Shown here: positions 1 through 58,110 of the stretch, in pieces
Layout of the letters: each line of letters starts with the position of its first letter
How positions within the stretch are numbered: position 1 is the stretch's first letter
NCBI GenBank assembly: GCA_033819885.1
Contig: JAQYUZ010000058.1
Location: forward strand, 16,676 to 80,675
Origin: Microbotryomycetes sp. JL201
Lineage: Eukaryota; Basidiomycota; Microbotryomycetes
Direction of reading: 5' to 3'
DNA: 64,000 nt
The notes under the pieces: model-generated
Told to the model about the DNA's origin: nothing
The model's database searches: none
The model's input: the letters and a program-made list of their open reading frames with translations, nothing else
Translations under genes and position numbers: made by a program

Positions 1-1187
1 ACAAAATGGAGCCACTTTCAGAATGAGCACCAGGCGGGCGGTCGCACGAGACGTACATTCATCGCAACACGACCCAGAGCTTTACCGCTGCGAAGGTCGT
101 ACAGGCAGACGGTCCTGTCGCTGCCACTGCTCGCGAGCACGGTGGTTTCCGATTTGTTGAATACGACATTGACTATGTGTTCGCCAACAGACATGTTGGA
201 CGTAGAGTGAAATTTGAGCGTCGAAAGCGGAGCAGTCTTTGTCTCGTCCCAGATGTCGATCGAGTGCGACGCCGTAGCAAAGACAGGGTCGAAGCGGTGA
301 TGCGTGACCGAGCTGTACACGAAGTCACGTCAGTGTTTAGAGCCGTGGAATAAGCGCAAGATTTCTCACTTGAATGCAGATTTGCCCTGATAGACCTGCA
401 AAGGCTGTTGCGCGAGACGACCGTAAGCATTCGCCACCGCCGACGCACATTCGAGGCACACTCACCTTGACGTGGGCGCCGCTGGGTCCTTTGAGGTCCC
501 ACAACTTGACCGTCTTGTCAACACCACATGACAGCACCCTCGGCGACCCTCTTGTGGCCGTCGAATCGTACGAAAACTGCCCGTCCTCTCCATCTTCGTC
601 GGACAAGTCTGCTCGACCCTTGCCTTTGTCGCCCAGCGTTGTTCGTTTGCGCTTGAGCGATTTTTCTCCTGCAGCGGGCTGCTTGTCTACGCGACCTTGT
701 TCTCCCTGAGCTGGCGGTGAAAAAGCGACGCCCTTGACCATGCCTCTGTGCGCTGCTTGGGCGTGCCACAATGTCTCGCGCCTGGCCAAGTCCCATACTC
801 TGACCTCGCCGTCGCCCGAGCCGGATGCGACGCGCGTAAGAGATCCACTCTCATCTTTTGTCATGCAGTACAAGCCATCGCCATGCCCGTCGAGCGCGTC
901 GACGAAAGGTTTGCTGAACATGCGCTCAAGTTTCGAGGCTGTCACTGCACGCTGATACTCGCGCGCTCGTGCGAACGGATGCAGCGCCGGGTCCAGATTG
1001 CGACTGACGGGCGCCGTCGACTGCGACGTGGACGCGAGGTGGTCGTCCAAGTTGCGGTGCAGCGTCTTGATTTTCTGTTGCGACGAGCGACAACACGACG
1101 TGATTAACAGTGGAAGATGACCAGACGTGCAAGTCAGCATCTTCTGATTCAGTTTGACCAGTCCAGCATGCACAGGGGACTTGCCAT
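1..1187 (-). CDS. SOF1: SOF1/DCAF13-type WD40 protein, 3' end outside window
   Basis: WD-repeat protein of the U3 snoRNP/SSU processome, needed in the nucleolus for early 18S rRNA processing. Exons on the minus strand: 1187-1185 (the ATG alone), 1074-466, 395-370 (26 nt), 312-57, then a donor at 56 leading out of the window. The N-terminus reads MKIKTLHRN, followed by RNLDPALHPF, AREYQRA and SKLERMFSKPF, which are hallmarks of the Sof1 family; WD blades with GSGDGEVRVWDL, DKTVKLWDL and SDRTVCLYDL follow. A basic/acidic insert (KRKRTTLGDKGKGR) sits between blades. Intron 1 (1184-1075) follows the ATG directly and has a GC-AG donor (GCAAGT). The C-terminal Sof1-like domain lies beyond base 1. 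About 100 bp separate its ATG from the start exon of GPN3 on the other strand, so they probably share a promoter. Confidence 0.93.
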
Positions 1188-1288
1188 GGTCAGTTTTGGT
1201 CGATTGACGAGCGGCGGCTCGAGCGCAAAAGTCAAAGTGCCAGTCAGAGCGGCCTCTTGCTCGAACACGCTATCTGCCACTGCCCACG

Positions 1289-2582
1289 AGTGAGCTCCAG
1301 TTGTCTGTTGACCTTAATAACTATTTGACATTGACTTGCTTCGTTGCACACCAGTGCGCTGTAAGCTCGCAGCCAGCTCGGCGATGGACGCCAACGCGAC
1401 AGCATATAAGCCGCTAACAATACCATGATCTAATTTCAGACGCTGTACTAGTCACTGGTCCAGCGGGCGCAGGCAAGTCGACCTTCTGCGCATCACTCAT
1501 TACTCACGCCCAGTCGCTCGGCCGCTCCGTGCACCTCTTTAACCTCGACCCGGCGGCAGAGAACTTTGAGTTTCCACCGTCACTTGACATCAAAGACCTC
1601 GTGAGCTTGGAAGAGGTCATGGAAGACTTGGAACTCGGCCCGAATGGCGGCCTCATCTATTGCTTCGAGTGAGTCTTGCACAAGCTCGGGTCGCCCATGT
1701 CCGTGCGGCTGACAGTTCCCTGGTCGCCAGGTACCTTATGAACAACATCGACTGGCTACAGGAAGCGCTCGGCGACTACGAAGACGACTTTGTGAGTGAC
1801 TATCGTCATAGGGGCGAGCTTGCCACTTTTGAGTCTAAGACCTTCTGCTGCAGCTCATCATCGACTGTCCCGGCCAAATCGAATTGTACACACATATTCC
1901 TATTTTGCCCAATTTGGCAAAACTCTTGACGACGACGATGAACATCAACCTCGTGTCCGTGTACCTGCTCGAGTCTCAGTTCATGGAGGACCCTGCAAAG
2001 TACTTCAGCGGAGTGCTTAGCGCCATGAGCTGTATGGTCGGTCTCGAAGTGCCAACCGTCAACGTCATGAGCAAAATGGACTTGGTCAAGAAAGCCGGCA
2101 CGAAGCGCAAAAGAGACGTCGATCGGCAAGTCTGCCTCTTAAAATTAATGCACGTGAACTTTCTCATTTGCTCATCTCGATTCGGCCGTTCGTTAGCTTT
2201 CTCGACCCTGACCCAGAACTGCTGAGGGAGAGCGCCAACAAGTCTACAAACCCGAAATTCCATGCGCTAAATAGCGCCATCGCGCACCTAGTCAGTACTT
2301 GAACGCACTGTCAAGCCGCACATTGTACTGACCGCTTGCCTAATGCATACATCTGCAGATCGAGGAAAATAACTTGGTTCAGTTCTTGCCATTGGACGTG
2401 ACGGACGAAGACAGCATCGGCGTCATCCTATCTCACATTGACAACGCTATTCAGTTTGGCGAACATGAAGAGCCCAAGGAGCCAGAGGACGTGAGTTTGA
2501 TACAGCCATCCGAGGCCAGGGTGCGATGTCTGATCGTGGCTTGTTGCAGCTCGACAATGGCGATTTTGATGTCGGAGAATGA
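1289..2582 (+). CDS. GPN3: GPN-loop GTPase 3 with split start codon
   Basis: GPN-loop GTPase that helps assemble and import RNA polymerase II. The 275-residue model has eight coding pieces: 1289 (the A of ATG), 1355-1360 (TGCGCT), 1440-1668, 1731-1791, 1854-2125, 2197-2290, 2359-2490 and 2550-2582. The product starts [19 protein letters not shown] (P-loop), then LDPAAE, the GPN motif [26 protein letters not shown] (G3) and MSKMDLV (G4), and ends in an acidic tail. No ATG reads into the P-loop exon in frame without splicing; the only good solution joins CACGA|TGCGCT|ACGCT across two introns with canonical ends (1290-1354, 1361-1439, the latter with CTAAC before the acceptor). Intron 2126-2196 is GC-AG. 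A GTG start at 1356 would be the alternative. Family identity is certain; the start is inferred. Confidence 0.92.
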
Positions 2583-56005: not shown

Positions 56006-58110
56006 ATGGCCACCCACGTGAGTTCCATTCTAGCCTTGGACGCTGCCAGCCTGCCACACGCTCCGCCAGCTCGAGTGGTTGCGGCTGTGCGAGCGTCGTT
56101 TCGTGGCCGCACCGCGTCTTTTTCTTTGCGAGCGAGCGCACGCTGACCTCTGCCCGCCATGCACCCATCGCAGGTCCTGTTTGAGAGTGCCACAGGCTTG
56201 GCACTCTTCTCGTCCGACTTTGCAGAAGAAATCGGCTCGAAAGGATCAAAGCAGGTGCAGCAGTCCGTCTCGGACGTGAGCAAATTCTCGAAAATGGTCA
56301 AACTCGTGTCATTCACGCCGTTTCAAGACGCCGCACACGCACTCGAAGTTGCCAATGACATTTCAGAAGGTGAGCGTGCTCTTGACCGATGCTGCAATGC
56401 TTTCGCCGGCTCGCCGACGACGACCTCGGCTGCGCAACTGCAACCTCATCATTTCGCAATCAGTCATTTCGCCCGACATGCTGGACCCCTGATACTCTGC
56501 GCATTCATTTCGTTTTCAGTGTGCATGACACTGACTAGCGTCCTGTCTGTCTCTGTTTCGGAAACCTAGGCGTCGTCCACGAGTTCCTCCAAAGCTTGCT
56601 CGAGCTCAACCTTGGCAAAAAGGCAGGCGTCGTTCTTGGCGTCGAAGAGCGTGGTCTGGCACAGTCGATCAAATCAATGCTCGGAATCGACTGCGATGCT
56701 ACAGAACGCTCGCTCGAGATCATTCGCGGCATCCGCTTGCACGCCGAGAAATTGCTCCAGGGCCTCGAAAAGGGTGACATGGACAGGTCACAGCTCGGTC
56801 TCGGTCACGCATACTCGCGTGCCAAAGTCAAATTCAACGTCAACAGGTCCGACAACATGATCATCCAGGCTATTGCCTTGCTTGACCAGCTCGACAAGGA
56901 CGTCAACTTGTTTGCGATGCGCGTGCGCGAGTGGTACGGATGGCATTTCCCCGAGCTTGTCAAGATCGTGCCAGACAACTACCAATACGCCAAGGTCGCC
57001 CAATTGATTGGCGACAAGTCCAACGTGTCGGACGAGACGGTCGAGCAGTTGACAGACTTGCTCGACAACAACGAGACGCTTGCTCGCAACATTGTTGATG
57101 CCGCTCGTGCCTCTATGGGAACAGACATCTCGCCTGTTGATCACATCAACATCAAAAACTTTGCGTCACGCGTGATCCACTTGTTCGAATACCGCAAGAG
57201 CTTGCAGGCATACCTGTCTGAAAAGATGGGCGTCGTCGCACCAAATTTGGCTTCATTGATCGGTGACACTGTCGGAGCGAGGTTGATCAGTCACGCTGGC
57301 TCGTTGACAAACTTGTCAAAGTACCCGGCCTCGACCGTTCAAATCTTGGGCGCCGAGAAGGCCTTGTTCCGAGCTCTCAAAACAAAGGGCAACACGCCCA
57401 AGTATGGCCTCATCTATCACGTCAGTTTGCTTTCTGTTCGCCTCGAGCGGATCTAGTGGGCTGACCTGCCGATATTTTTACTCTTCTCTGACCGGAATCA
57501 GTCGACGTTCATTGGTCGGGCAGGCACCAAGAACAAGGGACGAATTTCACGATTCTTGGCCAACAAGTGTTCTATCGCTTCACGTATTGATTGTTTCGCC
57601 GATACGCCTTCGACTCAGTTTGGCCAAGCGTTGAGGTCTCAGGTTGAAGAACGATTGGCTTTCTACGAATCAGGTTCAAACCCTACCAAGAATGCTACTG
57701 CTATGCAGAAAGCTTTGGCCGCTTTCAAGGCCGAACAACAAGAGCAGGAAGGTGGTGTTGCGGACGTGACCATGGACGTTGACGAGGACGAAAACGTTGA
57801 CAAGAAGGACAAGAAAAAGAAGCGAAAGAGTGAAGTTGCAGACGATGTTGAAGGTGGTAAAAAGGCTAAGAAGAGCAAGAAGGAAAAGACAGAGGTGACG
57901 GCGGCCGTTTCGGCCGCGGTTACTGAACCGACAGAACAAGACGAAGAGGCTTTGAAAGCTGCTCGTAAAGCCGCAAAAAAGGCTGCCAAAAAGGCAGCAA
58001 AGGAAGGTTCATCTGTCGCAGAAGCAGTAGCAGAAGCGGCTGACGAGACGATGAAGGAAGTCAAAAAGAGTAAAAAGGAAAAAAAGGACAAGAAAAAGTC
58101 AAAGGCATGA
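56006..58110 (+). CDS. NOP56: Nop56, box C/D snoRNP core protein
   Basis: Core protein of box C/D snoRNPs guiding rRNA 2'-O-methylation, in the nucleolus. 555 residues from exons 56006-56017 (MATH), 56174-56369, 56570-57420 and 57502-58110. Domains: N-terminal [13 protein letters not shown]; coiled coil; Nop domain with [57 protein letters not shown]-like text (read as [20 protein letters not shown]) and [40 protein letters not shown]; and a Lys/Glu/Asp KKE/D tail ([13 protein letters not shown]). The first two introns (156 and 200 nt) are long for this genome. NOP56 introns host snoRNAs in animals, but I could not define C and D boxes here. Confidence 0.96.

What the first reader, a model, noticed from the sequence alone, without database searches (positions are those of the whole stretch)
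1289..1440. Start codon of GPN3 split A|TG around a 6-nt microexon
The P-loop exon (from 1440) has no usable in-frame ATG. Splicing CACGA|GTGAGC...CACACCAG|TGCGCT|GTAAGC...TTTCAG|ACGCT yields ATGCGCTACGCT, i.e. MRYAVLV, exactly what GPN3 needs before GPAGAGKS. The start codon is thus made only by splicing, and exon 2 is six bases long. A retained intron would leave no start for the full protein, which could act as an on/off switch.
Basis: partly seen in the sequence, partly recalled or inferred. Interest (0 to 1): 0.75.

Follow-up and report, generated by a model that had tools for sequence, protein, structure and literature searches.

The report
Splice-made start codon in GPN3 gene
A fungus-like GPN3 gene most likely gets its start codon only when two short introns are removed around a six-base exon, a neat gene structure whose separate parts are already known from other fungi.

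Summary
The gene is a GPN-loop GTPase 3 (human GPN3, 9t5j_C, E=1.7e-86). The P-loop exon (1440-1668) has no in-frame ATG before 1619 (residue 63 of the model). Of 19 enumerated spliced structures upstream, two give a GPN3-like N-terminus, MRYAVLV; both use the 6-nt exon TGCGCT (1355-1360) and an A|TG-split start. In 3000 random 5' regions, 39 gave M(0-2 residues)[RK]Y and 4 did so with as good a splice score. Against it: intron 1 is weak (12.2, below all 71 training introns), and a rival without a family-like N-terminus scores slightly higher on splice and coding scores alone. No transcript or sister-species data could be reached. The parts have precedents: 47 Yarrowia genes have a one-base first coding exon, the A of ATG (PMC2911113), and a 6-bp exon is reported in Phanerochaete P450 genes (PMC1184071). 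The on/off switch has no evidence. The divergent neighbour SOF1 also seems to have an ATG-only first coding exon before a GC-AG intron. A new member of a known kind, modest interest.

The parts
1190..1289 (+). region that probably holds the GPN3 transcription start and first exon; its last base, A (1289), is the first base of the start codon. The transcription start itself is unknown; no ATG lies between 1189 and 1289
   Evidence: sequence; ATG list; the placing of the transcription start is inference
1290..1354 (+). intron 1, 65 nt, GTGAGC...CACACCAG; possible branch points GTTGAC, TTTGAC, ATTGAC (43, 26 and 20 nt before the 3' end)
   Evidence: (total score 12.2, below all 71 training introns); donor hexamer GTGAGC is used by 6 of the 77 introns of the window's gene models
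1355..1360 (+). 6-nt microexon TGCGCT: completes ATG, codes Arg, and gives the first base of Tyr
1361..1439 (+). intron 2, 79 nt, GTAAGC...GCTAAC...TTTCAG, phase 1 within the Tyr3 codon
   Evidence: total score 21.2, 44th percentile of 71 training introns
1440..2582 (+). rest of GPN3: exons 1440-1668, 1731-1791, 1854-2125, 2197-2290, 2359-2490, 2550-2582 (stop); the intron 2126-2196 is GC-AG
   Evidence: human GPN3 9t5j_C, E=1.7e-86
1185..1187 (-). predicted start codon of the divergent SOF1/DCAF13 gene; first coding exon is ATG only, directly followed by a GC-AG intron (1184-1075, GCAAGT...GCTGAC...CAACAG)
   Evidence: (weak splice score, 8.5); exon 2 begins KIKTLHRN, and MKIKT aligns from residue 1 of solved Sof1 chains; found by eye, alternatives not enumerated

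Best explanation
This is an ordinary nuclear GPN3 gene (an RNA polymerase II assembly/import factor by family) of an intron-dense, fungus-like genome. Two constitutive short introns sit in and just behind the start codon. Removing intron 1 (1290-1354) joins A to TG; removing intron 2 (1361-1439) joins the 6-nt exon TGCGCT to the P-loop exon; the mRNA then reads CACG ATG CGC TAC GCT..., with an A at -3. Shown here: the sequence, the homology, a list of alternatives and a chance rate. Inferred: that these junctions are really used, that splicing is constitutive, and that mis-spliced transcripts make no GPN3 and are probably degraded.
For: Protein family: RYA of the model aligns to RYA at residues 3-5 of human GPN3. 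Of 19 enumerated upstream structures, 2 give a family-like N-terminus and both use this microexon. Random 5' regions reach such a start with as good a splice score in 4 of 3000. Intron 2 scores like a typical intron of the window, and the intron 1 donor hexamer GTGAGC is among the commonest (6 of 77). There is no ATG between 1189 and 1289, so the splice-made ATG is the first AUG if transcription starts there. Context: A at -3. Each part has precedents in fungi.
Against: Intron 1 scores 12.2, below all 71 training introns (minimum 16.1), mainly from a weak acceptor (1.0, below all of them) and a donor at the 7th percentile. Ignoring the protein family, another structure scores slightly higher (-2.3 against -2.8 with coding score; -0.4 against -2.6 on splice sites alone), and its first intron (1189-1247, 19.3) scores better than intron 1 here. 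My gene finder chose that rival, start at 1186 with exon 1248-1302, but it could not represent a split ATG or a GC donor. No cDNA and no homologous gene structure could be consulted (searches found none; no genome held).
Confidence: 0.83

Rival explanations
1. A longer N-terminus: an upstream ATG (1186, or 1117 further up in the same frame) reaches 1440 through an exon such as 1248-1302, giving GPN3 an unrelated N-terminal extension (ending ...VSSSYAVLV).
For: Highest score in the enumeration (-2.3, splice sites alone -0.4) and the choice of the gene finder. ATG 1186 is followed by GTCAGT, the commonest donor hexamer of the window's models (14 of 77, this one counted); the intron 1189-1247 scores 19.3, 31st percentile.
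Against: Loses the Met-(x)-Arg-Tyr-Ala start that human GPN3 has. Its second intron is long (137 nt) with a weak donor GTCTGT (total 16.2, 1st percentile). ATG 1186 overlaps the predicted start codon of SOF1 on the other strand, so GPN3 transcripts may begin downstream of it (inference).
Confidence: 0.08
2. The same microexon and protein, but intron 1 uses another donor ending in A, such as A|GTCAGA at 1243 (112-nt intron), or both donors are used.
For: It is the only other enumerated structure giving MRYAVLV (score -6.1).
Against: Lower score than the 1290 donor (-2.8) and a longer intron.
Confidence: 0.06
3. No intron 1: translation starts at the genomic GTG (1354-1356) as a non-AUG start, with only intron 2 removed.
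For: GTG CGC T|AC is in frame.
Against: Any AG acceptor followed by TG reads GTG in the genome, so the GTG is no independent evidence. Its context is poor (C at -3). GTG starts are very inefficient in eukaryotes (general knowledge).
Confidence: 0.02
4. A regulated switch: retention of intron 1 or 2, or microexon skipping, is controlled to turn GPN3 on and off.
For: All three mis-splicings take away the start of the full protein; intron 1 is weak by the splice model. A microexon switch is reported in Trichoderma (PMC11121469, start of abstract seen).
Against: The same would hold for many early introns; GPN3 is expected to be needed constantly (general knowledge). Regulatory motifs were not looked for, so their absence is not claimed.
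Confidence: 0.04

Closest known systems
Yarrowia lipolytica genes with a one-base first coding exon (PMC2911113, section 6 read, passages)
   Same: The start codon is split A|TG by an intron; 47 such genes are reported there
   Different: The part read mentions no 6-nt second exon; a different fungal lineage is likely here (inference)
6-bp exon and microexons of Phanerochaete chrysosporium P450 genes (PMC1184071, passages seen)
   Same: An exon of six bases in a fungus with small introns
   Different: Exons of P450 genes; nothing in the passages seen about a one-base first exon or a split start codon
GPN-loop GTPase 3 (human GPN3, PDB 9t5j chain C; species recalled)
   Same: Residues 2-269 of 275 aligned, RYA and P-loop included
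   Different: Gene structure was not compared; only the protein was available
Single-nucleotide exon in Arabidopsis (PMC4674806, start of abstract seen)
   Same: Shows that exons far under the usual minimum are spliced; its abstract gives 6 nt as the smallest constitutive exon then known
   Different: A plant gene; whether it lies near a start codon was not seen

Membership tests
GPN3 (GPN-loop GTPase 3) | Overall similarity greater to GPN3 than to GPN1 or other GPN GTPases | tested here: met
   Of 5 distinct PDB sequences matched, the best is GPN3, 1.7e-86; next are 7zhf_A 'GTPase' (archaeal by recall) 2.3e-25 and GPN1 6.8e-25
GPN3 (GPN-loop GTPase 3) | P-loop and GPN motif | tested here: met
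   GPAGAGKS and GPNGG present and aligned to human GPN3; motif names recalled
Genes with an A|TG split start codon | First coding exon is the A of ATG, joined by splicing | tested here: inconclusive
   Best-supported structure by sequence and family, but no transcript evidence
Microexon genes | Internal exon of a few bases flanked by functional splice sites | tested here: inconclusive
   TGCGCT between CACACCAG and GTAAGC; the upstream acceptor scores weakly; use not shown
Regulated microexon or intron-retention switch | Condition-dependent inclusion changing the product | not testable with these tools
   Needs RNA-seq across conditions

The most novel reading that the evidence does not exclude
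The divergent pair SOF1-GPN3 shares a promoter of about 100 bp, and both start codons are bound to splicing (ATG alone as first coding exon on one side, A|TG plus a 6-nt exon on the other, with a weak intron 1 and a GC-AG intron). Splicing capacity could then set the output of a ribosome-assembly factor and an RNA polymerase II assembly factor together.
Probability: 0.04. Interest if true: 0.5.

Novelty: new member of a known kind. Interest (0 to 1): 0.27.

Why it matters
Start codons split by introns and exons of six bases are easily missed by gene finders: the simple one written here missed this start, being unable to represent a split ATG. The case is a clean test for annotation methods. 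If the structure is conserved it would show how a very small exon is tolerated at the most sensitive place of a gene expected to be essential.

Tried and rejected
These collections are viral and prokaryotic, so this says nothing about fungi. No whole genome is held for the window.

A first self-trained gene finder ran away (515 introns in 7 genes). In the next script a penalty of 18 gave 71 introns, 22 gave 4 introns, and the run at 26 crashed. The third script converged (32 models, 77 introns, median 64 nt) and was used, with the 6 introns starting before 2700 left out of training (71 kept). Those training introns are the finder's own choice, not transcript-proven, and are biased to strong sites. 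The finder allows neither split start codons nor GC donors.

Structural RNAs and tRNAs: none reported in the window (at Rfam gathering thresholds). A Pfam scan was sent once with a frame containing stops and returned an error; it was not repeated because the PDB search settled the family. Literature: six searches. None was aimed at showing that a split start plus 6-nt exon in GPN3 is absent from print, and I make no such claim. The phrase search for interrupted start codons (15 papers listed) gave nothing of use by its titles.

The idea that the GTG at the acceptor is a relic start codon was dropped: every AG|TG acceptor reads GTG.

Full report
What is there. The window looks like nuclear DNA of an intron-dense, fungus-like genome (inference): a self-trained finder gave 32 gene models with 77 short introns (median 64 nt; commonest donors GTCAGT, GTGAGT, GTGAGC; commonest branch GCTGAC; acceptor CAG in 62 of 77). 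At 1289-2582 on the + strand lies a GPN3 gene. The spliced product of eight coding exons is 275 aa without a stop and matches human GPN3 over residues 2-269 with E=1.7e-86, far better than GPN1 (6.8e-25) or the other GPN proteins listed.

The start. The P-loop exon begins with AC, the last two bases of a codon. Unspliced, both relevant frames meet a stop before any ATG, and the first in-frame ATG downstream is at 1619, residue 63 of the model, after the P-loop. The proposed A | TGCGCT | AC gives MRYAVLV. The RYA aligns directly with RYA at residues 3-5 of human GPN3.

Alternatives. I enumerated structures with one intron (40-400 nt) or two (40-200 nt each) that put an ATG in frame with 1440, using GT donors scoring above 0, donors GCAAG, GCGAG or GCCAG scoring above -1, AG acceptors scoring above -2, and sequence from 1101 on. 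There are 19, each listed with its most upstream in-frame ATG. Two give MRYAVLV; both use exon 1355-1360, with donors at 1290 (score -2.8) or 1243 (-6.1). The gene finder also chose that exon, with a start at 1186, though it could not have chosen a split ATG.

Chance. With 1190-1427 replaced by random sequence drawn from its dinucleotide frequencies, 2250 of 3000 trials had some spliced in-frame ATG within 60 nt, 452 had one with a splice score of -2.7 or better, 39 had M(0-2 residues)[RK]Y, 8 had MRY, and 4 had M(0-2)[RK]Y with that score. The pattern was set after seeing the model.

Splice-site quality. Scored with introns starting beyond 2700, intron 2 is typical (21.2, 44th percentile of 71) and intron 1 is weak (12.2; training minimum 16.1): donor at the 7th percentile, acceptor below all, branch at the 30th. 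The five other introns of this gene, whose junctions I set by the protein reading, score 17.3, 16.5, 10.5 (a GC-AG intron), 20.7 and 22.7; the rival's introns score 19.3 and 16.2. A weak score is therefore not disqualifying here, but it is the main evidence against the model.

Consequences of mis-splicing. Intron 2 retained: ATG opens 24 codons, then stop. Intron 1 retained, in a transcript from 1189 on: first ATG at 1619. Microexon skipped: no ATG around the junction. That this is a switch is not shown; it would be equally true of many genes with an early intron.

Neighbour. The divergent gene on the - strand is SOF1/DCAF13. Its conserved reading begins KIKTLHRN right after a CAACAG acceptor. 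With a Met put in front, residues 1 to about 120 align from residue 1 of solved Sof1/DCAF13 chains (the Met is mine, the KIK match at residues 2-4 is not). The fitting start that I found by eye is ACCATG|GCAAGT, an ATG-only coding exon at 1187-1185 followed by a 110-nt GC-AG intron with a GCTGAC 59 nt before its end. By my splice model this intron is weak (8.5; that score does not count the GCTGAC, which lies outside the branch window). An unspliced start at 1140 with an unrelated extension remains possible. The CCATGG at 1184-1189 carries an ATG on both strands. If both readings are right, two divergent genes about 100 bp apart have first coding exons of three bases and one base.

Precedents. 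In Yarrowia lipolytica 47 genes have a first coding exon of one base, the A of the initiation codon, and about 60% of introns lie in the first 10% of the coding sequence (PMC2911113, section 6 read). First introns near initiation codons are described for fungi more widely (PMC8476143, passages). In Phanerochaete chrysosporium P450 genes the shortest exon is 6 bp and microexons are common (PMC1184071, passages). Small exons are said to be frequent in basidiomycetes (PMC2897884, passages). The Arabidopsis single-nucleotide exon paper (PMC4674806, start of abstract) nt the smallest constitutive exon known before it. A functional microexon switch in a filamentous fungus is claimed for Trichoderma Xlr2, as the first of its kind (PMC11121469, start of abstract). 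The finding is therefore a combination of known features.

Verdict. It is a new member of a known kind, of modest interest.

Noticed in passing
1075-1187 (- strand): SOF1/DCAF13 appears to have a first coding exon of just ATG, followed by a GC-AG intron; its protein would then begin MKIKTLHRN, aligning from residue 1 of solved Sof1 chains.
   Followed up: partly
1184-1189: Palindromic CCATGG carries an ATG on both strands; on + it is followed by GTCAGT, the commonest donor hexamer of the window's models, on - by the GC donor GCAAGT.
   Followed up: partly
2126-2196: GC-AG intron (GCAAGT...TTAG) inside GPN3, required by the reading VDR|FLDPD; with that of SOF1, two GC-AG introns within about 1.1 kb.
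   Followed up: partly
56006-56174: Another gene with a very short first coding exon: ATGGCCACCCAC|GTGAGT, then ...GCAG|GTCCTGTTTGAGAGTGCC ([15 protein letters not shown]56-like by recall only; sequence).
   Followed up: no
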